This document shows positions 1,167-28,660 of a stretch of DNA of 34,503 nucleotides, in pieces. The notes beneath the pieces were generated by a model. It was given only the letters and a program-made list of their open reading frames with translations. It made no database searches and was not told where the DNA came from. Source of the stretch: Microcoleus sp. LEGE 07076 (GTDB lineage: Bacteria; Cyanobacteriota; Cyanobacteriia; Cyanobacteriales; Microcoleaceae); NCBI RefSeq assembly GCF_015207455.1, contig NZ_JADEWV010000053.1:1-34503 (forward strand), read 5' to 3'. The position numbers and the translations under genes were made by a program. Every line of letters starts with the position of its first letter. The stretch's first letter is position 1.

Positions 1167-1790
1167 CCGTGCCTCCGCTAGCTGCATCCTACTATGCTGA
1201 TTGTATCCAGCCGGAATTAAGTTGCGCTCTATCAAAAGTAGCTGGTTGTGGAAGCTACCGCCATCAGGTATTGTCTGTGATTTTTGATGGGAGAGCGAGA
1301 GAAGCAGAGAGGGGCAGAGAATTGGCAAGAACGAGGGCGATCGCATTTGTAGTAGGCGCTGTAAAAAAAATGCTTTTTGCAAAGCCGGAGATGTTCCGGG
1401 AGAATTGGACTGTTTGAGGAATAGAAATCAACAAATAGATAGAAACCAGGCCAGAAAGCGGGTTCGCAAAAATACGCGTTGTAGCCGGCCCAAACCCTAA
1501 AAAAACTCGGTTTCTCATACCAGGTTGAAAAAAGTCTGTCCCGAACTCAAATCTTCAATGGGAAAATAGTACGATCGTCCCAGAGCACCTCGAAGAGTCA
1601 TCTCGATCGCCCTCCCAAAGTTCCAAATCGCGCTAAGATGGCAGTGGCAGCCGTTAAAAAATCAATTACCAGCAGATTCCGAGTTCTTAACAGCAGTTTG
1701 CCTACTCAAACAATCTCAACTTTCAAAATCTGCGCTCATCAGGTTGTACTTTACTTAAATTTTGTGAAGTCGTAATATTTCTGCTCGATC
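1167..1790. other. Intergenic region, no gene seen
   Basis: These 624 bases hold no convincing coding sequence. The short open frames on both strands lack ribosome binding sites and protein-like composition. A degenerate relative of the AAACCGGGTTT repeat (AAACTCGGTTTCT) lies near 1503-1515. The region presumably contains the promoters of the exported protein (leftward) and of the histidine kinase (rightward), but no clear -35/-10 pair stands out. Confidence 0.5.
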
Positions 1791-4700
1791 ATGCCAATTA
1801 AATATCTGACAGATCCGATTTTAAGAATGTCGGGCAAAGTGCCACTTCGCATCGTCCTTGTGGTACCTTTTGCCCTCCAGACTTTCGCTGCGGTAGGGCT
1901 GACGGGGTGGCTGTCGCTGCGGAACGGGCGCATAGCCGTCAACGACGTTGCCACCCAACTGCGGGCGGAAGTGACATCGCGCATCAAGCAACACATTCAC
2001 AGTTATATCGAAACGCCACACCAAATCAATCAACTCAATCTCAATGCCATCCGTCTCGGCATTTTGAACGTGCAGGATTCCGCTAGTTTGCGGAACTACT
2101 TCTCCAAGCAAATCAAAATCTTTGATAAAATTAGCTACATTCAATTCGGCTCCGAACAAAAAAGTTTTATGGGAGTTGAACGCCTCGACAACGGCAAGTT
2201 GCAAGTTCGGATTTCTAATCAATCTACTGGCTATAACTTTTACAGCTACGCGCCCTCTGAGTTCGGGGAAGCAACCAAGCTCTTAAAAACTACTCCTAAC
2301 TACGACCCCCGCCTGCGACCTTGGTACACAGCTCCGGTGCGGGCCCGTAAACCTACCTGGAGTAAAATTTATACTTATTTTGACACTCCCAAACTGGCGA
2401 TTACGGCTGCACAACCAGTTTACGGCAACCGAGGAGAACTGATTGGAGTTGTGGGTACAGATTTGCTACTTTCCCAAATCAATCAATTTTTGGGAAGTCT
2501 AAAAATTGGTAAGTCTGGCAAAACTTTTATTATAGAAAGATCGGGGCAATTGGTGGCAAATTCTACTTCGGAACCGTCATTTATTGTCAGCAACGGCGTT
2601 CCCAAACGGATTGCCGCAGTCAGCAGCCAAAATGTTCTAATTCGATCGACAGCCCGCTATTTGATACAGCGCTTTGGCGATTTGAGCAAGATTGACAGCA
2701 CTTACCAGCTAGATTTTGCTCTCGGCGGACAACGGCAATTTCTACAGGTGACACCCTTCTCAGACAGCAGGGGCCTCGACTGGTTGATTGTGGTGGCGGT
2801 TCCCGAAGCCGATTTTATGGAAAGGATTAACGCCAACACTCGCCATACAGTGTTGCTGTGTTTCGGTGCTTTGGTGGTGGCGACGGCTATAGGGTGTCTG
2901 ACTTCGAGGTGGATTGCGATGCCGATTCGACGACTGAGCAAGGCTGCGGAGGCTTTGTCGCGGGGAGAATGGGACTCGATGGCGATCGATCCCCGCTTGA
3001 TGGCTTCTGTAGAGCGGGAGGATGAGGTGGGTGTTCTGGCTCGCTCTTTTAATACAATGGCCGCTCAATTGGAAGATTCGTTTACTACTCTCGAAAAACG
3101 GGTGGAAACTGCGCTCGCCGACAAAAATCAATTAATTATTTCCCTGAAACAATCGCAGCAAAAACTGGCTCTCCATCTTCACCAAACTCCTTTGGGGGCG
3201 ATCGAATGGAATCTAAACTTTGAAGTAGCAGACTGGAATTTGTCAGCCGAAAGAATTTTTGGATACAATCGCTTGGAAGCAATGGGACGGCACGGAGTCG
3301 ATCTAATAGTTCCTGAAAGCGATCGGGAGTATGTCAGGCAACTATCTATTACTTTGCTCGCCAATCAAGGAGGAGTTACCAGCATTAACAACAATCTTAG
3401 AAAGGACGGGAAAATTATTATTTGCGAGTGGTACAATACTACTTTGGTTGATGCTGATGGCAGCATCATTGGTGTGGCATCGCTGATTCAAGACGTGACC
3501 GAGTTTCACACTGCTGTGGAGCAGTTGCGGGCTAGCGAGCAGCGGTTTCGCCAGTTGGCTGAAAATATTCATGAGGTATTTTGGATTAGAGAACCCCATC
3601 AAAAGCAGCTCGTTTATGTCAGCCCTGCTTGCGAGAAAATATGGAATTTGAGCTATCAGAGTTTGCTGTCAGAACCGGAGGCTTTTTGGAATGCTATTCA
3701 CCCGGAGGATCTCGATCGCGTCAAGGCTGCTTTTGACAAACAAGTGCGGGGTGATTACGATCTGGAGTATCGGGTAGTGCGATCCCCCACGGGGGCTACG
3801 CCAACGGAACGTTCAGTTTGCTGGGTGCGCGATCGGGCTTTTCCAGTCCGCAACGAAACCGGAGAAATTTACCGCATCGTCGGCATTGCTGAAGACATTA
3901 CCCAGCGCAAATTAGCAGAAGAATTCCAAAAAGTTGCTCAAACCGCTCAAGCTGCAAGCCAAGCCAAAAGCGCTTTTTTAGCCAATATGAGCCACGAATT
4001 GCGTACTCCCCTCAACGCCATCATCGGTTACAGCGATATGCTCGAAGAAGACGCACAGGATTTAGGCTACGAAGATTTTATCCCCGACTTGCACAAAATT
4101 CAAACTGCGGGCAAACACTTGCTGTCTTTAATTAGCGACATTCTAGATATTTCTAAAATTGAAGCTGGGCGGATGGAACTTTACTTAGAAACTTTCAACG
4201 CGGTTAATTTAATTGACGAGGTAGTTTCTACTGTCAAACCATTGGTAGATAAAAATTATAATAAGTTTGAGGTTAATTGTGCTAGCGAGTTGGGAGTGAT
4301 GTATGCTGACATTACCAAAACTCGTCAAATATTGCTCAACCTGCTGAGCAATGCAGGCAAATTTACGGAAGGCGGCACGATTAAGCTGTCCGTTGAAAGA
4401 GTTAAACAGCACAGCTTAAAAACTCAAGAAATAACTGAATATTCCGACTTAATAATTTTCCGCGTAGCTGATACTGGCATTGGGATTCCGGCGGAAAAAA
4501 TGCAGCATTTATTTCAAGCTTTTATGCAGGGCGACTCCTCAACTACCCGCAAGTACGGCGGCACGGGTTTGGGATTGACTATTAGCCGTCATTTTTGCTT
4601 GATGATGGGCGGCGATATGCAAGTTCAAAGCCAGTTAGGTTGCGGTTCCATTTTTACTGTGTGCTTGCCGGCTCGCGTTGAATTACATAGAGAGGACTAA
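1791..4700 (+). CDS. Membrane sensor histidine kinase (dCache-HAMP-PAS-PAS-HisKA-HATPase)
   Basis: The protein has 969 residues. Membrane segment 1 is at about residues 18-44. It is followed by a periplasmic sensor of about 300 residues with dCache-like features (RPWYTAPVRA, then VGVVGTDLLL-type strands). Membrane segment 2 is at about 350-370, then HAMP (MPIRRLSKAAEALSRGEWD) to about 425. Two PAS domains follow at about 455-575 and 580-710. The dimerisation domain carries the H-box MSHELRTPLNAIIGY, with phospho-acceptor His735. The ATPase has DTGIGIP at 894-900 and GGTGLGL at 923-929. It should autophosphorylate in response to an extracytoplasmic ligand and pass phosphate to a separate regulator, but no receiver domain or response-regulator gene is nearby. 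The stop codon falls inside a 75-bp dispersed repeat. Confidence 0.93.
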   Translation: MPIKYLTDPILRMSGKVPLRIVLVVPFALQTFAAVGLTGWLSLRNGRIAVNDVATQLRAEVTSRIKQHIHSYIETPHQINQLNLNAIRLGILNVQDSASLRNYFSKQIKIFDKISYIQFGSEQKSFMGVERLDNGKLQVRISNQSTGYNFYSYAPSEFGEATKLLKTTPNYDPRLRPWYTAPVRARKPTWSKIYTYFDTPKLAITAAQPVYGNRGELIGVVGTDLLLSQINQFLGSLKIGKSGKTFIIERSGQLVANSTSEPSFIVSNGVPKRIAAVSSQNVLIRSTARYLIQRFGDLSKIDSTYQLDFALGGQRQFLQVTPFSDSRGLDWLIVVAVPEADFMERINANTRHTVLLCFGALVVATAIGCLTSRWIAMPIRRLSKAAEALSRGEWDSMAIDPRLMASVEREDEVGVLARSFNTMAAQLEDSFTTLEKRVETALADKNQLIISLKQSQQKLALHLHQTPLGAIEWNLNFEVADWNLSAERIFGYNRLEAMGRHGVDLIVPESDREYVRQLSITLLANQGGVTSINNNLRKDGKIIICEWYNTTLVDADGSIIGVASLIQDVTEFHTAVEQLRASEQRFRQLAENIHEVFWIREPHQKQLVYVSPACEKIWNLSYQSLLSEPEAFWNAIHPEDLDRVKAAFDKQVRGDYDLEYRVVRSPTGATPTERSVCWVRDRAFPVRNETGEIYRIVGIAEDITQRKLAEEFQKVAQTAQAASQAKSAFLANMSHELRTPLNAIIGYSDMLEEDAQDLGYEDFIPDLHKIQTAGKHLLSLISDILDISKIEAGRMELYLETFNAVNLIDEVVSTVKPLVDKNYNKFEVNCASELGVMYADITKTRQILLNLLSNAGKFTEGGTIKLSVERVKQHSLKTQEITEYSDLIIFRVADTGIGIPAEKMQHLFQAFMQGDSSTTRKYGGTGLGLTISRHFCLMMGGDMQVQSQLGCGSIFTVCLPARVELHRED

Positions 4701-5260: not shown

Positions 5261-5854
5261 TTAGTTTTTTATTTCCCGTTTCTGCCGCCCCAAAAGTTGA
5301 GCTGCTAATACCCCGCCGACAAAGCCAAAGAAATGCCCTTGCCAGGAAATTCCCGGCTGCTGCGGCAAAACTCCCCAAATTAAACCACCGTAGAAGAAAC
5401 CGACAATTAAAGATACCAAAATAGAGGTAAAGCTGCGTTCAAAATAGCCTCGCAGCAGCAAAAAGCCGAAGTAACCAAAGATTAATCCGCTGGCACCAAT
5501 GTGAACGGAATTGGGCGCGCCTGTCAGCCAAACTCCCAATCCGCTGACGAGCACAGTGACGGCACTCACGATAAAAAAGTCGCTGATTTCTCGCAGCATT
5601 ATCAACCAACCAAATGTCACAAACGGGAGGGTATTGGCTGCTAAGTGAGCAAAACTGCCGTGCAGAAACGGCATGAATATGATGCCTTCAAGCCCTTCGA
5701 TGCTGCGGGGGCGGACTCCGTAGGAATTCAGCGCTCCTCGGAACAAAAATACATCGACAATCTCGATCATCCAAAGGAGGGAGACGAAGCCGCCGAGAAT
5801 GGCGGCGTGGCTTTGCAATTCGCGGGTGATAGCTTTGGTTTCTGGGTTGCTCAT
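5261..5854 (-). CDS. Rhomboid family intramembrane serine protease
   Basis: This 197-residue polytopic membrane protein cleaves membrane-spanning substrates inside the bilayer. The catalytic serine is in the GxSG motif HIGASGLIFG (Ser122), and the catalytic histidine is in WQGHFFGFVGG (His174). HGSFAHLAANT at residues 65-75 is the conserved second-helix region, with the Asn that helps form the oxyanion hole. About six hydrophobic segments are visible, as expected for the bacterial core fold without extra domains. The C-terminus is a short basic cytosolic tail. It converges with the histidine kinase across the repeat region. No adjacent substrate candidate is evident, so its target is unknown. 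Confidence 0.93.
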   Translation of the reverse strand: MSNPETKAITRELQSHAAILGGFVSLLWMIEIVDVFLFRGALNSYGVRPRSIEGLEGIIFMPFLHGSFAHLAANTLPFVTFGWLIMLREISDFFIVSAVTVLVSGLGVWLTGAPNSVHIGASGLIFGYFGFLLLRGYFERSFTSILVSLIVGFFYGGLIWGVLPQQPGISWQGHFFGFVGGVLAAQLLGRQKREIKN

Positions 5855-6329
5855 GGGTTGTGAGGGCGGTGATCTCGGTTATTTCTAATTGTAGGAGTTT
5901 CTGCCCGATCGCACGAATCTACACTTGGCGCTGGGTTTCAGGGCTTTTTGCAGCGCCGTGATTATTTAAAACAATTATAACCTTCATTTAAAATTCCGCA
6001 TTTTCACGTATGGAATAATTCGCCTCAATGAGTCAGAATGATAAATGAACTGCACGAGGAGAGTCAACGAAAGGTTGAACCTAGAACCTAAAGTCTAGAG
6101 TTTCTACCGTCTAGATCCATACTCGGGCTGGCAATGAGGACACTTTTGCGATCGCACACCGTCTTTCAAAAAAACTCAGGAACTACTTTTTTCGGATCGA
6201 GTCATTAATTCAAGAAGTTTCATCCGGTAAAGCAAAACGAGCTGCTGTAGGTACTTATTGTAGACAAAATCTCCTATAAGCTCTACAAAGAGTTCTTGGC
6301 ACCTCGTTGTAAAAGAGGAACAGAGAAAT
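5855..6329. other. Intergenic region, no gene seen
   Basis: These 475 bases separate the divergent rhomboid and Mo-nitro_C genes and presumably hold both promoters. One HIP1-like site and a short TCTAGA-rich patch near 6095-6117 are visible. No coding frame with a plausible start or composition was found. A weak AGAGGAA ribosome site lies about 13 nt before the next start. Confidence 0.45.
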
Positions 6330-6707
6330 ATGAACGTATTTGAGAATACACAGTCCCATCGAATTCTGCCAATTTGGGTATGGCATGGCAAAGAAGAAAC
6401 TCCTGTTAGTGTCGCTACAAATCCTCAACCTTACGGCAATAAGCCGCGCTTTGACTTGTTGCATCCGCTGAAACAGTGGCTTGACAATACTGCAATTAAA
6501 AGTCAAAAGTTAGCTCGGTTTCTCTGCAAGTTTATTCCCAGCCAGTGTCCGTTTGAGCGGGAAGTCAAAGTTGGCGATCGCACTTTATTTTCCATTCCGC
6601 CGCTTTGCAAGTTAAATCCGCTTTACGAGCAAGTGGTTGGGATTCGCTTTCGTGCTCTGTGTTATTTGGCTGACGAGTGTGGCGTGGATGTAACTCCCTA
6701 TTGTTAA
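6330..6707 (+). CDS. Mo-dependent nitrogenase C-terminal domain protein (Mo-nitro_C)
   Basis: This 125-residue protein matches the cyanobacterial Mo-nitro_C family, named for a weak resemblance to nitrogenase C-termini. Diagnostic segments are the Cys-containing CKFIPSQCPFEREVKVGDRT, then FSIPPLCKLNPLYEQVVGIR and FRALCYLADECG at the C-terminus. It is cytosolic, without membrane segments, and contains several conserved cysteines. Family members occur in non-diazotrophic cyanobacteria too, so a role in nitrogen fixation should not be assumed. No nif genes are in the window. The function is unknown. Confidence 0.85.
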   Translation: MNVFENTQSHRILPIWVWHGKEETPVSVATNPQPYGNKPRFDLLHPLKQWLDNTAIKSQKLARFLCKFIPSQCPFEREVKVGDRTLFSIPPLCKLNPLYEQVVGIRFRALCYLADECGVDVTPYC

Positions 6708-6816
6708 TTTTCCAAAAACCTAAATTTCTAACTCTATTTTTACCTTCCCTTTTCCTTATTGGGGAGGGTTTCTTATTTTCAGATCGTTCGGTGGTTCAAA
6801 CCGCTAGTGCACAAGT

Positions 6817-6920
6817 TCGGCGGTTGAAACCTGTTGACCTCAAATTCGTATGTGGCGAAGCGCCCGTCATACGAATTCGAGGTCAAACTACAAAAACAAA
6901 GTCTGCCTTCGCAGACTAAG
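6817..6920 (+). repeat. CGGTTGAAACC dispersed repeat, copy 1 (with insertion)
   Basis: The ends match two other copies in this window (26634-26685 and, inverted, 30423-30473): CGGCGGTTGAAACC on the left and a hairpin GTCTGC-CTTC-GCAGAC followed by TAAG on the right (6901-6920). Between them the copy carries an extra palindrome at 6836-6884 that the other copies lack. The terminal hairpin may serve as a terminator of the Mo-nitro_C gene. Confidence 0.7.
6836..6884. repeat. 49-bp palindrome nested in the dispersed repeat
   Basis: GACCTCAAATTCGTATG (6836-6852) pairs with CATACGAATTCGAGGTC (6868-6884), with one mismatch in 17 bp. The loop is 15 nt. It interrupts the dispersed repeat between AAACCTGTT and AACTACAAAAAC, so it looks like a separately mobile small palindrome. 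Confidence 0.75.
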
Positions 6921-6942
6921 ATAGCGCGATCGCATTTAAAGA

Positions 6943-7244
6943 CTAGAGAGAGCGAATTACTCGTTGTTCGAGAATGCGTTTGCCGTTTTTATAAATACTG
7001 AGGCTAGCTCCTGTAACAATGTAATCCTAGGCGCCATTTTTGGCAACGTAACCCGTCCCCTCTTCAGTTTCATGGTTGATTCGTCTTTGAGGGCGATCGC
7101 TGTTTTGCTTTTTTTGCCCAATCTCTGAACGTTTATTTTGTCAACTGTTATGACTGTGAACAGGCGATCGATCGCTTCATTTTCTGATTGAATTGATTGA
7201 ATACGATACAAAATGTAGCTAGTGATGCATGAGTTAAGCTTCAC
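6943..7244 (-). pseudogene. Possible decayed coding sequence
   Basis: A 95-codon open frame runs from 7244 to 6957 but does not look like one continuous protein. From about 7072 leftward a different frame reads convincingly (EEGTGYVAKNGA, stop, DYIVTGASLSIYKNGKRI and on to a stop at 6943-6945), interrupted by one TAG. This suggests an old gene with a frameshift and an internal stop. It abuts the truncated DUF6544 gene, overlapping its stop by 4 bases. I do not recognise the family. It could be chance. Confidence 0.25.
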
Positions 7245-7675
7245 CGATAAATTGCATCATCAATCGTGGCGCCGAAAAACTCGCCCTCCGACTCAAACCG
7301 ATCAGAGCCAAAGTACCATCCAACCCATAAACGAGTTGGAATGGTGTAGCCGCTGAATGTGCTCTCTTCTTCTAAAATTCCACCGAAGTCCACATAATGG
7401 AACTCAGCACCTTCTGGATTGCCCCAGCGTGGTAGCTTGCAGGTTTTAAGACGACCCGTTTGATCAATGGTAAAATCTAGTTCGGCTCTCTCATCTTGTA
7501 CGACAAAACTGAAATGCAAAGAGTCTAGATGCGATGAATCTGGGCTTGTCCAGGAAACGTTATCGACGCAGAATACAGACGGTAAGCAGACTGACTCTGA
7601 TTGGAGGCGACCAATAGCCGACCGCGTAATATCCAAACCACTCTCTGTCATTACAGGAAATAATCCTAAAAGCTT
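7241..7675 (-). pseudogene. 5'-truncated DUF6544 (formerly DUF6920) family gene
   Basis: An ATG-started frame of 136 codons begins at 7651, but the same frame is open upstream to 7675, and those extra residues (KLLGLFPV) also look like family sequence. The protein ends with the family C-terminus: LPRWGNPEGAEFHYVDFGG, then SGYTIPTRLWVGWYFGSDRF and EGEFFGATID. Full-length relatives have roughly 270-290 residues as I recall them, so about the first half is missing. The break lies between 7676 and the actin gene on the opposite strand, so the loss may be linked to the arrival of the actin segment. The function of the family is unknown. The family assignment is from memory of the motif pattern. 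Confidence 0.6.
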
Positions 7676-7782
7676 TCACTTGAGGTGAGGTCAGTGAATT
7701 TTCGTTAAAATAGTTACTTTTTTAAAATGTACTAGGCTGTAGTCTGTTATTGAATTTAACCTCGTTTTTGCAGAATATAATC

Positions 7783-8919
7783 ATGTCAGATGGTGACGAA
7801 GATACAGTGGCACTAGTCATTGACAATGGCTCAGGCACGATAAAAGCTGGTTTTGCTGGGGATGATGCACCCAGGGCTGTTTTTCCCTGTATAGTCGGCA
7901 GGCCACGTCATCAAGGCGTGATGGTTGGCATGGGGCAAAAAGATTCTTATGTTGGGGAGGAAGCCCAAAGCAAGCGAGGTATCCTCACTCTCAAAAATCC
8001 CAATGAACATGGCATTGTGACCAACTGGGATGATATGGAGAAGATATGGCATCATACCTTCTACAAAGAACTCAGAGTTGCTCCAGAGGAACATCGCGTT
8101 CTGCTGACTGAGTCACCTCTAAACCCGAAAGCCAATCGGGAGAAAATGGTTCAGATCATGTTCGAGACGTTTCGTGTCCCGGCTCTATATATTGCGATCG
8201 CCCCTGTATTATCACTCTATGCCAGTGGTCGTACTACCGGAATCGTTCTTGATTGTGGCGATGGTGTTAGCCACACAACTCCCATTTATGAAGGGTACGC
8301 GTTGCCCTATGCCACTATCCGTCTAGATTTGGCAGGACGCGATCTGACGGATTATCTGATGAAAATTATGACCGAAAAGGGGTATAGCTTTACTACTACA
8401 GCGGAACGAGAAATCGTGCGAGATATCAAAGAGAAATTATGTTATGTCGCTCTTGATTTTGAGCAGGAAATGCAAACAGCAGAACAGGGTAGTTCCCGTG
8501 AAATGTCATACGAATTACCTGACGGTCAAGTGATTACCATCGGCAATGAACGTTTCCGTTGCCCTGAAACCTTGTTCCAGCCAGAATTCATTGGTATGGA
8601 GTCGGCGGGAATTCATGAAACACTGTATAAATCTATTATGAAATGTGATGTGGATATTCGTAAGGATATCTATGCGAACATAGTCCTGAGTGGTGGCACT
8701 ACCATGTTCCCTGGTATAGCTGATCGGATGCAAAAAGAAGTATCGGCTCTTGCTCCTCCCAACATAAAAATCAAAATTATTGCTCCTCCAGATCGAAAAT
8801 ACTCCACTTGGATTGGTGGTTCAATACTTGCTTCTTTATCGACTTTTGAACAAATGTGGATTACTAAGCAGGAATATGATGAAAGTGGCCCCTCCGTTGT
8901 TCATCGGAAGTGTTCCTAA
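7783..8919 (+). CDS. Eukaryotic-type actin
   Basis: This 378-residue protein is a conventional actin, not MreB, ParM or FtsA. Compared by hand with human cytoplasmic actin from memory, it aligns without internal gaps at roughly 84% identity, with a 3-residue longer acidic N-terminus. Present are the phosphate loops DNGSG (14-18), DCGDGVSH (157-164) and GGTTMF. The DNase-I loop [11 protein letters not shown] is unchanged, His76 (actin His73) is kept, as are the Lys213/Glu214 region and RKYS. The C-terminus is HRKCS, so the last Phe is Ser. Ala140-Pro141 replaces actin Gln137-Ala138, and that Gln positions the hydrolytic water. I chose the ATG at 7783 because MSDGDED fits actin N-termini, although a TTG at 7750 is in frame. 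No Shine-Dalgarno sequence precedes it. An actin was described in the cyanobacterium Microcystis aeruginosa PCC 7806. No profilin lies here. Confidence 0.97.
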
Positions 8920-9162
8920 AGACAAATAAACTTGCTATAGCGTGCGTTCCCTTCAGCCGATAAATTGTTGGCAACGCACTCTGCTCATAAATATCTTGGA
9001 GTCAGCGATCGCCTAATAATCACGAATCACAGGAATAGCGATCGCTTTAGGGTGAGTTAATGAAATGTAACGCTCCTTATTTTTGTTTGAATGAAAGCAT
9101 TCTGTTCGGAGCAGTTTCTGGTCAGTTATAATGTGAGATAAGGATCGAGGAAATTCACAATC

Positions 9163-9435
9163 ATGGTAGTTCGTCAACCCCGCTATAGCAAAGAAGAATT
9201 TGCCCAACGTGGCGATCTAATTTATCAAACGCAAATACGCCCAAAAGTCGAAGCAGGTAATCACGGGAAGATTGTGGCGATCGACCTTGAAACTGGAGAC
9301 TTTGAAATTGATGCGCGTGAAATAGCTGCTTGCACTAGGCTAGAAACCCGTCATCCAGATGCTCAAATCTGGATTGTTCGAGTTGGTTCTCGCCACGTTC
9401 GACGATTTGGTGGACGAACAAAGAGAACTGTATGA
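9163..9435 (+). CDS. Small cyanobacterial protein partnered with aspartic protease
   Basis: This 90-residue cytosolic protein contains YSKEEFAQRGDLIYQTQI, then IRPKVEAGNHGKIVAIDLET and ETGDFEID. The pattern is found in many cyanobacteria immediately upstream of a clan AA aspartic protease, as here. The C-terminus is basic (GGRTKRTV). GAGGA lies about 11 nt before the ATG. The stop overlaps the next start (ATGA at 9432-9435), which indicates translational coupling. Because such pairs are small, widespread and patchy, a toxin-antitoxin-like relationship has been suspected, but the sequence does not prove it. Confidence 0.75.
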   Translation: MVVRQPRYSKEEFAQRGDLIYQTQIRPKVEAGNHGKIVAIDLETGDFEIDAREIAACTRLETRHPDAQIWIVRVGSRHVRRFGGRTKRTV

Positions 9436-9809
9436 TCTCAGGAAGTGTTAACGCAGATTTTGAGGCGATTATCTCGCTTTCGATATGTGGCTCTGATGGA
9501 AAAATTTACACACAAGATGCGATCGTAGATACAGGCTTTAACGGTTGGCTTTCATTGCCGCCAGACCTGATAGAGCGGCTAAATCTGAAATGGAAAAGAA
9601 GAGGACGTGCTATTCTTGGCAATGGTAGTGAATGCGTTTTTAATATTTACGAAGCAGTTGTATTTTGGGATGGACAGTATCTAACAATTCCAATTGATGA
9701 AGCGGATTCAGAACCTCTAGTTGGAATGTCACTAATGGAAGGCTATCAACTCATGGTTCAAGTCTTTGAGGACGGCAGCGTAGAAATCAGCAAAGTAAAA
9801 TCAGTCTAA
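9432..9809 (+). CDS. Clan AA (retropepsin-like) aspartic protease
   Basis: This 125-residue single-domain protein has the aspartic-protease active-site motif AIVDTGFNGWLSLP (Asp33-Thr34-Gly35) and the later hydrophobic segment PLVGMSLMEGYQL that forms the second half of the retropepsin fold. Such proteins work as homodimers that share one active site. The ORF overlaps the preceding gene by 4 bases, so the two form an operon. There is no signal peptide, so it acts in the cytosol. Natural substrates are not known. The 90-residue partner is the obvious candidate for a substrate or regulator, which is inference. Confidence 0.82.
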   Translation: MISGSVNADFEAIISLSICGSDGKIYTQDAIVDTGFNGWLSLPPDLIERLNLKWKRRGRAILGNGSECVFNIYEAVVFWDGQYLTIPIDEADSEPLVGMSLMEGYQLMVQVFEDGSVEISKVKSV

Positions 9810-9878
9810 CTTCGCACCGTTAGACTGTGAAATCTCAGAACTGTGAATCTTGAGGCTAATCTCAACCAATTCTCATCC

Positions 9879-10793
9879 TTATTTCTGGCTATCGAGAATT
9901 TCCTTCGCCTTTAAAAGTTCCTGATGTTGCTCTTTGCTAACCTCGGGATATTTTAGATTCAGTTCCTTTAACTGCGTGTAAATGATACCCGCCACAACCA
10001 GACGAGTAAACCATTTGCGATCGGCGGGGATAATATACCAAGGAGCATATTCTGTACTGGTGTGATTAAACATATCCTCATAGACGGCCATATAGTCATC
10101 CCAAAAGGCACGCTCTTTCGCATCATTCACAGAAAATTTCCAATTCTTTTCAGGGCGATTAATCCTTTCTAGAAAACGTTCTTTCTGCTCCTCTTGAGAT
10201 ACATTGAGGAAAAACTTGAGAATGATCGTTCCATTATTGACCAGATGCTTCTCAAAGTTGTTGATTTCTTCAAAGCGGCGCTTCCAAATATCATTATCAA
10301 TTATACTAACAGGGAGCGGTCGCTGCTCTAGGATTTCTGGATGCACTCTTGTTACTAAAACTTCTTCGTAATAAGAGCGATTAAAAATTCCAATTTTTCC
10401 TCTTTCGGGTAAACGCTTAGAACATCGCCACAAATAGTCATGATTTAACTCTTCCGCAGATGGAGCTTTAAAGCTGTGCACCTGACATCCTTGAGGATTA
10501 ATCCCAGACATAACGTGCTTGATGGTACTGTCTTTACCAGCCGCATCCATCGCCTGAAAGATGATTAGCACAGCATGGGTGTTTTGGGCATAGAGAACAT
10601 CCTGATATTTAGCTAATGCCTCAATACCTTCCTTTAATTGACCTTTAGCTTTCGACTTTTTGAGGCGATCGGCTTTGTAGGCTGGGTCATAGTCTTTGGC
10701 AAGAGAAATTTTTCGTTCTGGTGGCACAATAAAAGGACGAATCAAATCGTCAAGGTTTTCGATGGGAAATGGGTTTAAGGATGAATGTGTCAT
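9879..10793 (-). CDS. ppk2: Polyphosphate kinase 2 family (PPK2)
   Basis: This 304-residue cytosolic enzyme transfers phosphate between polyphosphate and nucleotides, usually making NDP or NTP from polyphosphate. The Walker A-type loop is [12 protein letters not shown], with Asp83 and Lys87. [13 protein letters not shown] (135-147) is the conserved central segment, with its Arg. The lid region is [12 protein letters not shown] (210-221). A single PPK2 domain with an N-terminal extension of about 70 residues is the usual one-domain architecture. It stands alone on the minus strand, converging with the protease pair. Class (I, II or III) and substrate cannot be decided from the sequence by eye. 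Confidence 0.93.
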
Positions 10794-10901
10794 ACTTTTA
10801 ATTCTACCCTATTCAGGTAATGTCTTGACATAAGCGAGCGCGTCAGCTTGTCATGAATGTTTTGTATAGAACCCATTTGGAATCTTAGATATTGAGGTAA
10901 G

Positions 10902-11314
10902 ATGAATTCGCAAGTGATTATTGAAGTTTGATCGAACTCTACAAAAACTTGCGCTCGCAGGGATAAATTTAAATTTTATCAAACAATTCCAACATTGCAA
11001 GAGTATATTCTGATTTACCAATCTCAGGTTTATGTAGAACAGTAAGCTGTTCGACATCTAAATTTCATTTTTTGTGCGGGCGGGACACCCCACAAGAACT
11101 TTATCAAGTTTTGACTGTGCAGTTTAAATGCAGAACAGCTTATTGTAGATTGGCAAACAAGCGGTGGTCGTATCGTCACTACGATCAGGAGGATGCGGCG
11201 CTAGTTTTTAATTTATTTCAAGTAGAAGTGCCGCTGCCAGATGTCTATTAAAAATTAGATTTTGATGCGGGGAATGAGCGTAAAAATGAGAGTGGAGAGA
11301 ACAAAGAGGAATAA
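10902..11314 (+). pseudogene. Uma2 family pseudogene, split by a MITE
   Basis: The frame parallels the C-terminal half of the intact Uma2 gene that follows: NSQVIIEV, stop, SNSTKT, RRDKFKFYQTIPTLQEYILI, and then VEQ at the insertion. After the MITE it resumes with NKRWSYRHYDQEDAALVF and VEVPLPDVY. There are three lesions: a TGA after IIEV, the 96-bp insertion at 11045-11140, and a TAA in place of a Lys codon at 11249-11251, after which KLDFDAG continues to a stop at 11312. The N-terminal half, including the first catalytic region, is missing. The tandem position and similarity suggest an old duplication with the next gene. Confidence 0.85.
11045..11140. mobile_element. 96-bp TA-flanked MITE
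   Basis: The ends are AGCTGTTCGACATCTAAATT and the inverse of CAGTTTAAATGCAGAACAGC, plus a final T. The first 8 bases are perfect and 16 of 21 match in all. TA dinucleotides flank it at 11043-11044 and 11141-11142. Removing 11045-11142 joins the two halves of the Uma2 pseudogene exactly in frame. TA target duplication is typical of the IS630/Tc1-mariner superfamily. It has no coding capacity. The centre contains GCGGGCGGGACACCCC. Confidence 0.85.
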
Positions 11315-15190: not shown

Positions 15191-15322
15191 ATCCAATTAT
15201 TATGTTTGCTTCAACTCTGCAAAAAATTGGCAATTAATTCTCTGTTTGAGAAAGGCGATCGCTCCCACAAGAGTGTTAAACTGAATCTAGCGGTCGTGTT
15301 AAGCAAGGAAAAAATAGCCGTG

Positions 15323-15616
15323 ATGCGTATCCAAGAACAAATTGTTGACAAACTGAAAAACTTCTCTGAAATCGAACTGCAAGAAATCCTCAAGTTTGCG
15401 GATTTCCTGTTATGGCAGCGGAGAAACCAAGAAGTAGCTTCGCCATCCGATGAAACTGGCAACAGCCAACCAGCAAATATGGATGAAGAGTGTGAGGTTC
15501 ATTATGTTGGTGGAGTCTTAGTAGTCAAAGCATCAGCAGTAAAAACTGAAGAAGTAATTAATTGGGATACAATTATTTACGAGATGCGCGAAGAAAGAAT
15601 CGGGAAGTTTATCTAA
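15323..15616 (+). CDS. Antitoxin-like protein upstream of PIN remnant
   Basis: The protein has 97 residues from the ATG at 15323, where AAGGA lies about 14 nt upstream. The frame is open further back, but that part is not protein-like. The N-terminal helix IQEQIVDKLKNFSEIELQEI followed by LKFADFLLW is the DUF2281-type antitoxin signature. The C-terminal half (HYVGGVLVVKASAVKTEEVI, then MREERIGKFI) is typical of cyanobacterial antitoxins paired with PIN toxins. A toxin start codon follows one base after the stop, but that toxin gene is broken. The antitoxin therefore looks orphaned. Confidence 0.75.
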   Translation: MRIQEQIVDKLKNFSEIELQEILKFADFLLWQRRNQEVASPSDETGNSQPANMDEECEVHYVGGVLVVKASAVKTEEVINWDTIIYEMREERIGKFI

Positions 15617-15617
15617 A

Positions 15618-15698
15618 ATGAACGTTTTATTTGATACATCCGTTCTGATAGCAGCGTTGATAGAAGATCGTCCCAGTCACTCTCAAAGCTTATCTTGA
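15618..15698 (+). pseudogene. PIN-domain toxin, 5' fragment
   Basis: Twenty-six codons begin with MNVLFDTSVLIAALIEDRPS, the first strand and first catalytic Asp of a PIN-domain ribonuclease (VapC-like), including HSQ. A TGA then ends it, whereas full PIN toxins have about 130-140 residues. A second frame briefly continues (AYLDWSEFDRLN) before a stop, which suggests a frameshift followed by deletion. Its position one base after the antitoxin stop is the normal VapBC order. Confidence 0.75.
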
Positions 15699-15757
15699 TT
15701 GGAGCGAGTTCGATCGCCTCAATTAGTTTAAAGGCTCGGAGGGCAGTTTTTCGATGG

Positions 15758-18121: not shown

Positions 18122-18135
18122 CACCCCAATCCTAA

Positions 18136-19662
18136 CTACGCGCCGACAGCTTCCTTGGCCGCGTACAACACCTCAGCATTAATCTTCTCAATCCCCCGCT
18201 CGCGCGCAAACTTCTCAGTGTTCCGCTTCACCTTACCGCGCACAAAACCAGGGATTTTATTCAATTCTGCCTGTCCATCCTTCGTCCAATTCATATCAGA
18301 ATCTGCCGAAATACCCTTGGTAATTACTTCCTTAGTATCGTGGCCGCCGAAGATTTCCAGCAAGTGGTCTTCCATTCCCAAAGTAAAGGAATTGTAGACC
18401 AAATCTACGCACTGATTTGTGCCTTCATAACCCAAAAATGGCTTGTAGCCGATCGGGAAATTTTGGACGTGAATCGGCGCAGCAATCACACCGCACGGAA
18501 TATCAAGCCTTTTACCCACGTGGCGTTCCATTTGCGTGCCGAAAATCGCCGAAGGTTCCGCTTTGGCGATCGCATCTCCGATCGCCCCATGATCCTCCGT
18601 CACCAGCACTTCATCACAATAACCTTTTACCTCTTCCCGGAACCAGTCAGCATCGTGTTTGCAGTAGGTTCCTGCCCACACAACGTGGATTCCCATCTCG
18701 CGAGCCAAAATCTTCGTCATCGCCGCTGCGTGGGTGTTATCGCCAAATACGACGGCTTTTTTGCCGGTTAAGTTTTGGCAGTCGATCGACCTTGAGAACC
18801 AAGCAGCCTGAGACACAAACCGCGTTTGTTGGTCAATAAAATCTTCATAATCAACATCCGCACCTTGAGCATTCAAAACTTGCTGAATCTTGCGAATACA
18901 GCGCGCCGTTTCCACTACACCCATCGGCGTAATATCCACCATCGGCGTACCGAATTCTTTTTGCAAATACTCCCCGGCCATCATCCCCAATTCCCGATAA
19001 GGAACCAAGTTAAACCAAGCCCGCGGCAGTCTTTTTAAGTTGTGAACCGAAGCACCTTCGGGAATAACTTCGTTGACTTCAATTCCCAAATCTGCCATCA
19101 AACGCTTCAACTCGGTGCAGTCGTGCTGGTTGTGAAAACCCAGCGTAGACATCCCGATAATATTCACCGATGGTTTTTCGCTTTTGGCTTCTACTAAATC
19201 GCCTTTTTTGCGAGCTTTGTTAATGTAAAATTGCACGATTTGATCTAAAGTGCGATCGGCAGCTTGGAGTTCGTTGACTCGATAATGGTTAACATCCGCC
19301 AGCAAAACATCGCCTTTAGCATCCAATTGAGCTCGTTCCACGAAGTTTTCCAAGTCTTCTTGCAGAATGCTGGAGGTGCAAGTCGGGGTGAGCACGATTA
19401 AATCTGGGTGCTCTTCTCTATCTTTGCGGGTGATATTGTCCACCACCCGTTCCTGGGAACCGCGGGCGAGTACGTGTCTGTCAACGACGCTGGTTGTGAC
19501 TGGAGTAAAGTCGCGTTCCCTTTCCAACATCGAGCGCATGACGTTAAAATAGTCGTCTCCAATCGGTGCGTGCATGATTGCGTGGACGTTTTTGAAGGAA
19601 GTGGCCACGCGCAAAGTGCCGATGTGGGCTGGGCCTGCGTACATCCAATAAGCCAATTTCAT
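18136..19662 (-). CDS. chlB: Light-independent protochlorophyllide reductase subunit B
   Basis: This 508-residue protein is full length. ChlB with ChlN forms the nitrogenase-like catalytic component that receives electrons from ChlL and reduces protochlorophyllide in the dark. The start [20 protein letters not shown] is diagnostic. Further conserved segments are [36 protein letters not shown] and [34 protein letters not shown] and the C-terminal helical region with [20 protein letters not shown] are also present. AGGA lies about 10 nt before the ATG. chlL and chlN are not in the window, so the subunits are encoded apart. A 12-bp palindrome GCCCGATCGGGC at 19693-19704 lies upstream. Confidence 0.98.
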
Positions 19663-20191
19663 AGGTATTTTTCCTGGTGTTGGTTGAGATTTGCCCGATC
19701 GGGCGATTACTGCTAAATTTTAAGGTTGTTTCCGATTTTCTCACCGGATGAATCCTTTAGAAATAGTAACTTTCTGAAAACTTACAGATGACAAAAAAGC
19801 TCAAACCCTTTTACTGGTTCGGCTTTTACTCGCAATTCCCACAATTTTACCTTTGTTTTATGGCAATAATTCTTAATTTATTGTCAAGTTTCGTTAAGAA
19901 ACCGACAAATCCGAGCCGCCGAGGCTGCACCTGAAGCGCCTCACACCTAGATATCTGCCAAAATTTTCGCAATATGGTAGTTATTGACTTTTTAGCCAAC
20001 TCACAATAAACTATTAATTGATCCACTATTTCCCGGCAGCGTTTTACAAGAAGCGGGGGAGATATTTGCGTAGCCAATACAGATTCCACCGAACTCAGTG
20101 GCAGTATTGAATCCCCAAAAATTGCGACAAGCTCCCAACCAATTGCTATCATGCCTGTAGATTCCCAAATTGCTAGCGCGATCGGATACAA
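19663..20191. other. chlB upstream region, no gene seen
   Basis: These 529 bases hold no convincing gene. An open minus-strand frame of 114 codons begins at TTG, has no ribosome site and matches nothing I recognise. The chlB promoter should lie here. The palindrome GCCCGATCGGGC (19693-19704) is 31 bp before the chlB start and could be a regulator site or a chance extension of a CGATCG core. Confidence 0.45.
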
Positions 20192-20532: not shown

Positions 20533-21056
20533 TTTTCAGCGCCCGTTACTCAACCCGCACTCCTGGGGTGAGAGTTAGACTCGCAGGGCCGTTTCAACCG
20601 CCCTGTCTCCTAAAAGCTGATATTGTTTTTGAGTCAGCCGCGCGATCGAGCATCATAACCTGTTGCAGCATTTAAATTATCTGTCAATAAACAATCAAAC
20701 AATCCGTGGGGCCGACTCGCCACCGCCCCGAATATCCAATTTAAACCCCCAATAGCCTAGCAAATCCTCACAAATCCTTTATTTGTGGTGGTGTTCGCCT
20801 AAATGCTGAGCTGACAAAAGCCCAGCGCGCTTTTGTCAGCAACTCTTTACTGTCAAGCCGTGTCTTCCCACACACCCCAAAAGATAGCTCTTGAGCGATA
20901 ATGAAGGATAACATAGGATTTACCAAAAACCCGGTTCATACGAAAAAATCTGGGGTTTGTCAACGACTAGCAACAAAAAAACCGGGTTTCTAGCCCGCCG
21001 CGCGTAGTAAGTCCTGTAGTATTGACCAAGCACACCTAATTTGAGAGAAGCCAACT
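20533..21056. other. Intergenic region with two palindromes
   Basis: These 524 bases have no gene. They hold a perfect 11-bp hairpin GCTGACAAAAG/CTTTTGTCAGC (20810-20820 and 20830-20840), a partial CCGTTTCAACCGCC repeat motif near 20590-20603, and AAACCGGGTTT unit B at 20925-20991. The promoter of the hybrid kinase should lie in the last part, but no clear hexamers stand out. Confidence 0.55.
20925..20991. repeat. AAACCGGGTTT palindromic repeat, unit B
   Basis: Bounded by AAAAACCCGGTT (20925-20936) and AAAAAAACCGGGTTTCT (to 20991). It is the same family as units A, C, D, E and F, but with both copies of the core motif in switched order. Confidence 0.75.
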
Positions 21057-24000
21057 ATGATGGCAATTCCCGGCGTTGCAGTTCTCGCTCTCATTTATGA
21101 AAGCAGCACTTCCCTCGTTTACCGCGGCCGCAACGAGCAAGACAACCAACCTGTTATTATCAAACTTATCAAAGAAGACTATCCGACTCCAGACGAACTG
21201 AATAGATACAAGCGCGAATATGACATTACGGCAAACTTAAACTGCCTGGACGGAGTTGTTAAAGTATACAAGTTGCAGCAGGTTAGAAATAGTCTGGCAA
21301 TGATTTTAGAAGATTTTGGCGGCGAATCTTTGAAAATATTTATGGCTTCCCAAAAATTTACCACTTTAGGATTTTTGACCACAGCCATCAAAGTTGCTGA
21401 AACTTTGGGAGAGATTCACGCCAAAAACGTAATTCATAAAGATATCAACCCCTCTAATATAGTTTTCAATCCCGCTACCGGACAAGTTAAACTCATAGAT
21501 TTTAGCATCTCAACTGCATCCAACCAAGAAAACGTTTCCAATAAAAATCCTAATTTTTTAGAAGGCACTTTAGCCTATATGTCGCCGGAACAAACCGGCA
21601 GAATGAACCGGGTAGTCGATTACCGCACCGACTTTTATTCCCTCGGCGTCACCTTCTATGAAATCCTATCAGGACAGCTCCCTTTTCCCACTACCGATCC
21701 GATGGAGTTAGTTCACTGTCACATCGCCAAACAGCCAGTACCTCTCGCTGAACTTTCACCAGAAATTCCTAAAGCTGTTTCAGATATTCTAATGAAATTG
21801 TTAGCAAAAACTGCTGAAGATCGCTATCAAAGTGCTTGGGGACTCAAAGCAGATTTGGAATCCTGTTTGTTTCAGTTGCAAACATCTGGGATTATTTTTG
21901 AGTTTGCTCTCGGCAGCCAAGATATTTCCGACAAATTTCAAATCCCTCAAAAACTTTACGGCAGACAGCGAGAAGTTGAAACTCTTTTAGCAGCATTTGA
22001 ACGAGTAGCAGCAACAAATAATCGAACCCACCGCCTCGATCAATCGCAAATTTCTGTCATCAAGAAAGAACTCAAATCTAAAAAAGAAAGTGCCCTGTCA
22101 GTGCTGGCGAGAGGACAGCATAAATCCCGCAGCGAGATGATGCTGATTGCTGGTTATTCCGGCATTGGCAAATCTGCAATGGTGAAGATTTTAGACAAAC
22201 CCATTACCCGCAGGCGCGGCTATTTTATTTGGGGAAAATTTGACCAGTACAAGCGGACTATTCCTTACTCTGCCGTTGTCAGCGCTTTTTCGGAATTAGT
22301 GCGGCAACTGTTAACTGAAAGCGAAGCTCAATTGTCAGTTTGGCGCGAAAAACTCCGCACTTCTTTCGGTCAAAACGGGCAAATTATTATTGATGTAATT
22401 CCAGAAGTTGAACTAATTGTCGGATCTCAATCTCCTGTCGCTGAATTGGGGCCGACAGAATCTTTTAACCGCTTTAATTTAGTCTTTCAAAATTTCATTC
22501 GCGTATTTTGTCAGCCAGAACACCCGCTGGTGATTTTTCTCGACGATTTGCAGTGGGCAGATTCTGCGACTCTCAAGCTGATCGAATTGATGATGACAGA
22601 TGAAGCGACACAATATCTGTTTTTAATCGGCGCTTATCGGGATAATGAAGTCAGTCCCACTCATCCTTTAATGATGACTGTGGAGACGCTGCGAAATCAT
22701 GAAGCTATCGTCAATCAGATTGCTTTGTTACCGCTGGGAGTTGACAACATCACTCATTTGATTGCCGAAACTTTGCACAGCGATCGCGAATCTGTCAAAC
22801 CTTTAGCTGAACTCGTTGTCAGCAAAACAGACGGCAATCCTTTTTTTGTCAATCAATTTCTCCAAACATTGTATCAAGAGAATCTGCTAGTTTTTCACCC
22901 GCCACAGTCGGGTAGCAAGGGCGGCTGGCATTGGGATATGACTCAAATTGAGCAGTGTGCTATCACTGACAATGTAGTAGATTTGATGGTACAAAAGTTG
23001 AGAAAACTGCCGACTACCACGCAGCAGGTTTTGCGTTTGGTCGCTTGTTTGGGCAACGAATTTGATTTAAATACTCTTTGTTTAATTAATGAGAAAGAAG
23101 CGTCGGAAACTTTTTCGCAGTTACTGCCGGCGATCGAGTCTGGACTGATCCTGCCAACTTCGGAATTGGAAAGCAAGTCACTAGATTACGTGATGTTTCC
23201 GCTGTTAATTCTGAATTATAAATTTTTGCACGATCGCGTGCAGCAAGCCGCTTACGCTCTGATCGACGACTCGCAAAAAAAAGCTGTCCACCTGAAAATA
23301 GGCAGGCAAATCCTCGAAAACACTCCGGCTGAGTATCGCGCTGACAGAATTTTTGAATTAGTCGATCACTTGAATGTAGCTCGATCGCTAATTACAGACG
23401 AGCGAGAACTAATTGAACTGGGAACGCTGAATTTAGACGCCGCCCGCAGAGCCAAAGATGCCACAGCTTATGTTGCAGCCTTGCAGTATTTGACCGCAGG
23501 TATGGACGGTTTGACGGCCGATATTTGGGATTTTCACTACGACTTAGCCTTTGCTCTGCACATGGAGCGGGCAAATGTTGAGTATCTAAACGGCTATTTC
23601 GAGCATTCAGAAGAATTTATCAACATAACTTTGGAAAAAGCGCGATCGCCCTTAGAAAAAGTAGAAATTTACAACCTGCTGATCGTGCAGTACACCCTCC
23701 GAGCCAAGTACGAAGAAGCCGTTAAAGCCGGAATCCAAGCTTTGAACTTGCTAGGAATTGACTTGCCGCTAGACGGACTGCAAAAAGTCATCTCCGAAGA
23801 ATTTGCAGCAGCCACAAATAGTTTAGCAGGAACAGAAATAGCTTCCTTGATTGACGCACCAGAAATGACTGTACCCGACAAAAAAGTTGCAGTCAAATTA
23901 ATCACAAACTTATTAACATCCGCTTACCTAAACAATCCAGACTTGTGGAAAGTCAGCGTATTAAAAGGAGTCAATCTCTCTCTCACCTACGGTTTAGTAC

Positions 24001-28102: not shown

Positions 28103-28636
28103 TTAAACAAACTTAAAGTCGCGACGAGAAGATGTTGGATTGAGGTTGAGGTCAGTCACATTTTTGACAATACCCAGCGTATCTCCGCCCGTAGTTTGTA
28201 TGAGCGTGTCATTGCCCTCACGGGTGAGGCGATACTGACTGGCATTACCGCGCAACTGGATATAATCATCGCGGAAGTTGTAGTCTACAATAGTTGCCTG
28301 ACCGGTTCCTAGGTAGAACATTCCCTGGCGTGAGTTTCCCAACACAAAGGTATCTGCCCCCGCTCCACCTTCGAGAGTGTCTAAATCGGGGCTATTGGGT
28401 CTGCTGGAATAGCCGTCGAGGTAGTCGTTACCTGCACCACCATTTAGGTAATCGTTACCGCCTTCACCATAGAGGGTGTCGTTGCCATTTTGTCCGTATA
28501 GTTTTTCATTGGCACCAGAACCAGTCAGGGTGTCGTTACCAGAAGTACCATTAATGATGTTATCTCCTTGCGTTGGTAGCTTCGGATTGCTACCACCTCC
28601 ATTATTCAACTGCGAATAAGCTTGGAGCGGACTCAT
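28103..28636 (-). CDS. RTX-type calcium-binding repeat protein
   Basis: The protein has 177 residues from the ATG at 28636. The centre (about 25-75) has four to five nonapeptide RTX repeats ([34 protein letters not shown]) that bind calcium in a parallel beta roll. A second cluster, [11 protein letters not shown], follows. The C-terminal 90 residues resemble the closing domain of cyanobacterial hemolysin-type proteins ([15 protein letters not shown]). It should be exported by a type I system, which is not in the window. The frame is open upstream through 28675 into the end of an insertion sequence, so the N-terminus or promoter may have been lost by insertion. Confidence 0.8.
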
Positions 28637-28660
28637 TGTTTGCTGCTTCAAGAGAGCGAT

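What the first reader, a model, noticed from the sequence alone, without database searches (positions are those of the whole stretch)
7783..8919. Full-length eukaryotic-type actin gene in a cyanobacterial chromosome
The 378-codon uninterrupted frame encodes a conventional actin, collinear with eukaryotic actins and far from MreB/ParM/FtsA. It has the intact DNase-I loop, phosphate loops and C-terminus. My hand comparison with remembered human cytoplasmic actin gives roughly 84% identity, which is approximate. Flanking genes and HIP1 sites are cyanobacterial, so it is a transferred gene and not eukaryotic contamination at the window scale. Only Microcystis aeruginosa PCC 7806 is known to me as a cyanobacterial precedent, and that one had a profilin neighbour; none is seen here. 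Purifying selection seems to have kept the reading frame.
Basis: partly seen in the sequence, partly recalled or inferred. Interest (0 to 1): 0.95.

Follow-up and report, generated by a model that had tools for sequence, protein, structure and literature searches.

The report
Eukaryote-type actin in a cyanobacterium
A filamentous cyanobacterium carries an intact gene for actin, the cell-skeleton protein of animals, plants and fungi, with its fuel-burning site altered; related actin genes, some cut down and some next to animal-like actin-binding proteins, turn up in a dozen other cyanobacteria, which makes borrowed actin much less of a one-off than it seemed.

Summary
Window 7783-8919 encodes a 378-aa conventional actin (PF00022 E=7e-147; 85% identical to a PDB beta-actin). 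Flanks on both sides are collinear with a one-contig genome of the same genus, with the actin in a variable segment between them. Contamination is very unlikely; reads were not available.

(2) This gene shares 5' leader DNA with a Spirulina copy and an interrupted copy in a third genome, and its synonymous divergence from both is far below that of a control gene: it moves between cyanobacteria. (3) Catalytic Gln137 is Ala, inside a HIP1 octamer; 11 of 15 bacterial actins tabulated have lost it. (4) Some relatives have beta-thymosin or profilin next door; none was found in this genome. (5) Five relatives lack subdomain 4, or 2 and 4.

Best reading: a transferred actin kept by purifying selection, probably forming slow-turnover filaments, like ActM of Microcystis. 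Expression and function are untested; mechanism is inference (0.55).

The parts
7783..8919 (+). actin CDS, 378 aa plus stop
7737..7782 (+). 5' leader aligned with the Spirulina copy (46 nt) and, for 27-28 nt, with the interrupted copy in G522; holds a tract (CGTTTTTGCAG) that resembles a eukaryotic 3' splice site (by eye only, weak)
8113..8115 (+). codon for actin residue 108 (Ser, Ala in the eukaryotic rows), Pro-rich loop at the ATPase cavity
8194..8201 (.). HIP1 octamer GCGATCGC inside the CDS; it covers the codons of actin residues 135-137 and so encodes most of the Ala codon (8200-8202) that replaces catalytic Gln137; same arrangement in L062
9006..9045 (.). dispersed HIP1-bearing repeat just downstream; a 92.5%-identical 40-nt copy lies behind the Spirulina actin
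6779..9816 (.). variable segment that holds the actin gene; the left match ends at 6774-6779 in 5 of 7 same-genus genomes aligned (7016 and 7069 in the other two); the right match in G203 starts at 9817
7241..7651 (-). left neighbour, match to the C-terminal part of DUF6920/DUF6544
9163..9809 (+). right neighbours, two small ORFs without Pfam match; similar DNA occurs elsewhere in several same-genus genomes
9879..10793 (-). PPK2 polyphosphate kinase

Best explanation
A conventional eukaryotic actin gene entered cyanobacteria and then moved between cyanobacterial families; this copy sits in a variable stretch of the chromosome of a Microcoleus-like cyanobacterium (genus inferred). It is kept as a working protein. 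Most nucleotide and filament-contact residues tabulated (D-loop, hydrophobic plug, Tyr169, D11, D154, H161) are preserved, so it should bind ATP and polymerise. The ATPase cavity is changed (Q137A, A108S, A138P); in muscle actin Q137A alone slows hydrolysis without stopping assembly. With neither profilin nor beta-thymosin found in the genome, the filaments should turn over slowly and act as a static scaffold, comparable with the shell of ActM in Microcystis. Shown: gene, linkage in the assembly, relatives, movement between cyanobacteria, constraint, residue changes. Inferred: polymerisation, slow turnover, scaffold role.
For: Family and identity. Flanks collinear with one-contig genome G099 and with G394. 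Leader shared with L005 and L062, 3' repeat with L005. Clade WIN+L062+L005, support 89/84. Actin dS 0.39 to Spirulina and 0.48 to G522, against chlB saturated (pS 0.765) and 1.77. dN/dS 0.13 (window-L062); 0.04 (window-L058, dS near saturation, rough). Residues; HIP1 over codons 135-137. Q137A actin polymerises and hydrolyses slowly: PMC10062479 and PMC9646518 (passages). The top PDB hit, 8gt4, tied in score with a beta-actin, is that Q137A mutant. ActM forms ribbons and a shell: PMC3254629 (introduction, discussion).
Against: No expression data. The promoter scan of 7400-9300 is at chance (3 sites, 4.4 expected; none of them just before the gene on its strand). 1 of 29 same-genus genomes searched has the gene. 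dN/dS window-Spirulina is 0.42. Q137A may reflect the forming of a HIP1 octamer and not selection on turnover. H173, T324, M325 and F375 differ too. The G522 copy is broken. A proposed salt-tolerance role of actM was not borne out: two salt-tolerant Microcystis strains lack it (PMC5996124, passage). The structure model from 7 sequences was poor (mean pLDDT 49) and supports nothing.
Confidence: 0.55

Rival explanations
1. A passenger gene: recently moved in, transiently intact, with no function in this host.
For: 1 of 29 genus genomes. The G522 relative ends after about 170 residues beside a transposase-like ORF (ORF named by eye). Catalytic Gln lost. dN/dS 0.42 to Spirulina.
Against: 378 intact codons and dN/dS 0.13 to G522 at dS 0.48 (160 codons); about 0.08 in two comparisons within genus g41.
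Confidence: 0.22
2. A bait or effector aimed at eukaryotes: actin that ties up actin-binding proteins of grazers or parasites.
For: Reduced relatives keep mainly subdomains 1 and 3, where profilin binds actin (recalled). A bacterial actin with a Tat-like leader exists (L010).
Against: The window protein begins like cytoplasmic actins, without a leader by eye. A bacterial profilin beside actin in G097 and G432 points to an internal partner. Nothing shows release.
Confidence: 0.13
3. Eukaryotic contamination or a chimeric contig.
For: Draft of 495 contigs; reads not available. Some hits look like eukaryotic contaminants (L006 and L009: gene split over two frames).
Against: Collinear flanks; leader and repeat shared with other cyanobacteria; HIP1 in the CDS; codon-usage correlation 0.66, inside the range 0.59-0.90 of seven window genes; relatives in genomes of 1, 3 and 5 contigs.
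Confidence: 0.03
4. Same gene, but ordinary dynamic actin: Q137A is a side effect of HIP1 formation and filaments turn over normally.
For: GCGATCGC covers codons 135-137 in the window and L062. D154 and H161 are kept, and Q137A slows but does not abolish hydrolysis (PMC9646518).
Against: 9 further bacterial actins in the table lost Q137, and none of these 9 coding sequences holds a HIP1 octamer. A108 and A138 changed too.
Confidence: 0.07

Closest known systems
ActM/PfnM of Microcystis aeruginosa PCC 7806 (PMC3254629; PMC2442094)
   Same: Eukaryote-type actin in a cyanobacterium, patchy distribution, on a genomic island.
   Different: ActM is given as 65% identical to eukaryotic actin and lies by a profilin gene; this one is 85% identical and no profilin was found. 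G097 (64-65% to the window, profilin 289 nt downstream) may be ActM or an ortholog, but its profilin scores only 45 bits at best against PDB profilins, while the paper gives 84% identity for PfnM, so this is open.
   Same: Same clade, shared 5' leader, A108S and loss of Q137; L005 also shares the 3' repeat.
   Different: Spirulina copy 73% identical over 367 aa, residues 39-44 of the D-loop missing, Thr at 137; the G522 copy ends after about 170 residues.
Conventional eukaryotic actins (PF00022)
   Same: Full length, collinear; D-loop, D11, K18, D154, H161, C374.
   Different: Q137A, A108S, A138P, H173Y, F375S; no profilin or beta-thymosin found in the genome; gelsolin search without a positive control; cofilin not tested.
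MreB, ParM, FtsA and other bacterial actins
   Same: Same fold superfamily (established knowledge).
   Different: About 14% identity to eukaryotic actin by PMC3254629 (introduction); Pfam lists Actin alone for the window protein.

Membership tests
Conventional actin (PF00022) | Pfam Actin match over the whole length above the curated cut-off | tested here: met
   489.7 bits against a cut-off of 27, residues 7-378
Conventional actin (PF00022) | Nucleotide-binding residues D11, S14, K18, D154, D157, H161 present | tested here: met
Conventional actin (PF00022) | Catalytic Gln137 | tested here: not met
   Ala; inside a HIP1 octamer. Not a condition for belonging to the family, but it changes the expected enzymology
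Conventional actin (PF00022) | Polymerises into filaments with ATP | not testable with these tools
   needs purified protein
ActM/PfnM system | Eukaryote-type actin in a cyanobacterial chromosome | tested here: met
   (assembly level)
ActM/PfnM system | Profilin gene next to the actin | tested here: not met
   no profilin match in G000, while G097 and G432 have one beside actin
Actin plus beta-thymosin pair (relatives L058, L060, L002) | Beta-thymosin ORF behind the actin | tested here: not met
   none near; no match in G000; 3 of 340 genomes positive

The most novel reading that the evidence does not exclude
Cyanobacteria, and perhaps several other bacterial phyla, hold a mobile, repeatedly acquired kit of eukaryotic actin with or without profilin or beta-thymosin. 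Inside bacteria it is remodelled in parallel: loss of the catalytic Gln137, and in five cyanobacteria loss of subdomain 4 or of subdomains 2 and 4. The last leaves inner-domain actins of 249-265 residues, of which at least one pair evolves under constraint (dN/dS 0.215). Such a protein lacks most of the outer ATP clamp, so it would be a new kind of actin: a binding or capping body, not a filament motor. The window gene would be an early, full-length stage of this path.
Probability: 0.5. Interest if true: 0.92.

Novelty: new variant of a known kind. Interest (0 to 1): 0.82.

Why it matters
A 2012 paper describes eukaryote-type actin in bacteria as found solely in one Microcystis strain (PMC3254629, introduction). 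Here it is a recurrent feature, with natural replicates that differ in partners, ATPase residues and even subdomains. That makes an old question testable: is actin so conserved because of its own mechanics or because of its many partners? Bacteria that lack those partners have run the experiment several times.

Tried and rejected
Contamination was tested first and is rejected at assembly level. Viral origin: one scan of the viral collection with the window protein, which reaches close relatives only, gave none. Tree with eukaryotes: no donor resolved; 14 of 20 inner branches open, 1 starred by the tool's summary. Donor by profilin: at most 45.1 bits against PDB profilins, so no donor is named. 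Gelsolin in 12 actin-bearing genomes: 0 hits, but nothing rang in the controls either, so nothing follows. AlphaFold: mean pLDDT 49, discarded. Five orphan-profilin loci searched for hidden actins: none at a meaningful E-value. Promoter and terminator scan: at chance.

Papers: beta thymosin + bacteria + horizontal gene transfer + actin gave 0 papers, and actin gene + cyanobacterium + eukaryote-to-prokaryote + gene transfer gave 0. The other searches returned ranked, cut lists (20 of 80; 2 of 2; 3 of 3; 10 of 12; 8 of 12; 10 of 346; 8 of 65). From titles and abstract starts only the Microcystis papers looked to the point; PMC6906331, on a planctomycete and naming ActM, was listed but not opened. 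Read: PMC3254629 outline, introduction, discussion and passages; PMC2442094, PMC5996124, PMC10062479 and PMC9646518 passages only.

Rows set aside: L004 and L059 (same contig, near-identical to L058) left out of tree and residue table; L008, L011, L012-L014 (fragments) and L107 left out of the tree. The cardiac actin row is the engineered Q137A mutant 8gt4 and is not counted as a natural eukaryotic actin. Blast rows under 60 bases were dropped.

Full report
WHAT WAS CLAIMED AND WHAT IS THERE. The frame at 7783-8919 runs from ATG to TAA without a stop and encodes 378 residues. Pfam lists Actin alone, E=7.3e-147. The 60 PDB sequences shown, of 135 matched, are actins. Identity is 85.3% over 374 residues to a PDB beta-actin and 80-86% to worm, Dictyostelium, maize and yeast actins. 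It is the only PF00022 match at E<=0.001 in a genome of 6.79 Mb in 495 contigs, completeness 99.6%, contamination 0.19%. The window is a whole contig.

LINKAGE. Blast of the window against stretches of up to 20 kb from seven same-genus genomes (rows of 60 bases or more) shows collinearity on both sides. In G099, a single contig of 6.70 Mb, window 1598-4685, 5273-6778, 15245-15717, 18132-19899 and 20759-26258 lie in the same order within 15.4 kb; nothing between 6779 and 15244 has a match in that stretch. In G394 matches run to 7069 and resume at 10901. In G203, 9817-11044 and 18122-20033 match in order on one contig. The actin gene therefore lies in a variable part of a cyanobacterial chromosome. 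The genus is probably Microcoleus: G394 has six contigs and a 7,479,014-base chromosome, which I recall as that of Oscillatoria nigro-viridis PCC 7112; no call names it.

HOW COMMON. 1 of 29 genomes of the genus and 3 of 61 of the family have such actins (E<=1e-30). In the order it is 12 of 388 at E<=1e-20, and 13 of 368 at E<=1e-6 with an alignment of reduced forms. In an even draw of the phylum it is 2 of 386 at E<=1e-40. Outside the phylum, one search found relatives on MAG contigs with neighbours that look bacterial: L007 (Aureispira, 63%), L002 (Alteromonadaceae, 77%), L003 (Myxococcales, 70%; GC3 0.85) and L010 (unnamed bacterium, 52%, beside ATP-synthase-like ORFs) (neighbours judged by eye). 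These are MAGs, so misbinning cannot be excluded. L006 and L009 have the gene split over two frames and look like eukaryotic contamination.

MOVEMENT BETWEEN CYANOBACTERIA. The window copy, the Spirulina copy (L005) and an interrupted copy in G522 (L062) share leader DNA directly before the ATG: 46 nt between the window and Spirulina, 27-28 nt with G522. They form a clade (89/84; not a starred one). A 40-nt HIP1-bearing repeat follows the gene in the window and in Spirulina. Synonymous divergence of actin is 0.39 (window-Spirulina), 0.48 (window-G522) and 0.33 (G522-Spirulina). For chlB of the same genomes it is saturated (pS 0.765), 1.77 and 1.71. The gene thus moved between families after those lineages split. 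One control gene was used.

SELECTION. Nei-Gojobori dN/dS is 0.13 for window-G522 (160 codons), 0.42 for window-Spirulina (367), 0.40 for G522-Spirulina (149), 0.04 for window-L058 (375, dS near saturation), 0.07 for window-L061, and 0.078 and 0.077 within genus g41. Constraint is clear but weaker towards the Spirulina copy.

THE ATPASE SITE. In actin numbering the window has Ala at 137, Ser at 108 and Pro at 138. Gln137 positions the attacking water; in muscle actin Q137A slows hydrolysis but allows assembly (passages of PMC10062479 and PMC9646518). Of 15 bacterial actins in the table, Q137 is kept in 4 (L058, L060, L061, L003) and lost in 11 (Ala 2, Thr 2, Gly 3, Arg 2, Asn 1, Asp 1); the 7 natural eukaryotic or eukaryote-like rows keep it. 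G498, aligned separately, has Asp. In the window and in L062 the codons of residues 135-137 read GCG ATC GCC, which contains the HIP1 octamer, so the change to Ala may have come about as a HIP1 site formed. The coding sequences of the other nine have no HIP1 octamer.

PARTNERS. A beta-thymosin ORF follows the actin by 61 nt, behind a Shine-Dalgarno-like sequence, in L058 and in L060, which lies in the one-contig genome G488, and by 71 nt in L002. The L004 peptide matches PDB thymosin beta-4 and beta-9 (E=4e-18 for a chimera with thymosin beta-4, 3e-14 for beta-9). In the order, 3 of 340 genomes have beta-thymosin, all three with actin (Fisher p=3e-5 if the 12 actin genomes lie in that sample). 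Two of the three (G480, G491) are near relatives, so that test is generous. Profilin occurs in 7 of 388, next to actin in 2 (G097, G432) and in 5 genomes for which no actin match was listed (Fisher p=0.017). G000 has neither.

REDUCED ACTINS. G427 encodes 303 residues lacking actin residues 189-263, most of subdomain 4 (181-269, recalled). G510 and G105 (265 aa each) lack about 34-63 and 188-268; G432 (257 aa) lacks about 34-67 and most of 177-268. G498 (249 aa, more distant) lacks about 35-63 and 188-268. Frames are intact; dN/dS between the G510 and G105 genes is 0.215. In G432 profilin lies beside such an actin. The losses fall near subdomain boundaries and arose on at least two, probably three lines (tree; support is weak for G432 and G427).

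VERDICT. The gene and its transfer are solid at assembly level. The most likely working is a filament-forming actin with slow ATP turnover and no partner found, used as a static scaffold, by analogy with ActM (PMC3254629). No step of function has been shown here. The wider set of relatives is the more surprising result. In the library searched I saw no paper on it (most of them cut lists); many subscription papers and preprints are not held.

Noticed in passing
L058:9009-9143 (+), L060:7031-7147 (-), L002:2216-2335 (+): Beta-thymosin-like peptides directly behind bacterial actin genes; one lies in a genome of a single contig (G488).
   Followed up: partly
L056:5799-6710, L057:5147-5920, L063:7424-8221, L064:7331-8128, L107:6984-7733: Actins lacking subdomain 4, or subdomains 2 and 4, as intact frames.
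   Followed up: partly
   Followed up: no
L012:7347-8483, L013:7116-8165, L014:7179-8279: Proteins of unnamed and Polyangia MAGs with leader-like N-termini (by eye) that carry short actin pieces: the DNase-I loop (twice in L014) and, in L012, also residues 242-284. Pfam sees only a sub-threshold actin piece in L012 and nothing in the others.
   Followed up: partly
L010:1613-2857: A full-length actin (52% to the window) with a Tat-like leader (SRREFLALTAGGLLAAPLLARG, by eye), beside ATP-synthase-like ORFs in a bacterial MAG.
   Followed up: partly
L071-L075 (G483, G412, G408, G434, G360): Profilin genes in five cyanobacterial genomes with no actin found in the stretches read and no actin match listed; in L075 the profilin is at the contig edge.
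   Followed up: partly
window 8194-8201 and L062: A HIP1 octamer lies over the catalytic-glutamine codon of actin, a possible case of a genomic repeat changing an active site.
   Followed up: partly
L062:6457-7455 and L060:8338-9081: Transposase-like ORFs (by eye) touch the actin gene: one at the broken end in G522, one overlapping the start of the long frame in G488.
   Followed up: no
G480:C161 and G491:C98: Two genomes held as different species have actin contigs of 121,003 and 121,002 bases, 97.4% identical over the 2.7 kb compared; they may not be independent.
   Followed up: no
window 28103-28675 and 28750-29844: An ORF with calcium-binding-like GGxGxD repeats and a transposase-like ORF (both by eye) at the right side of the window.
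   Followed up: no
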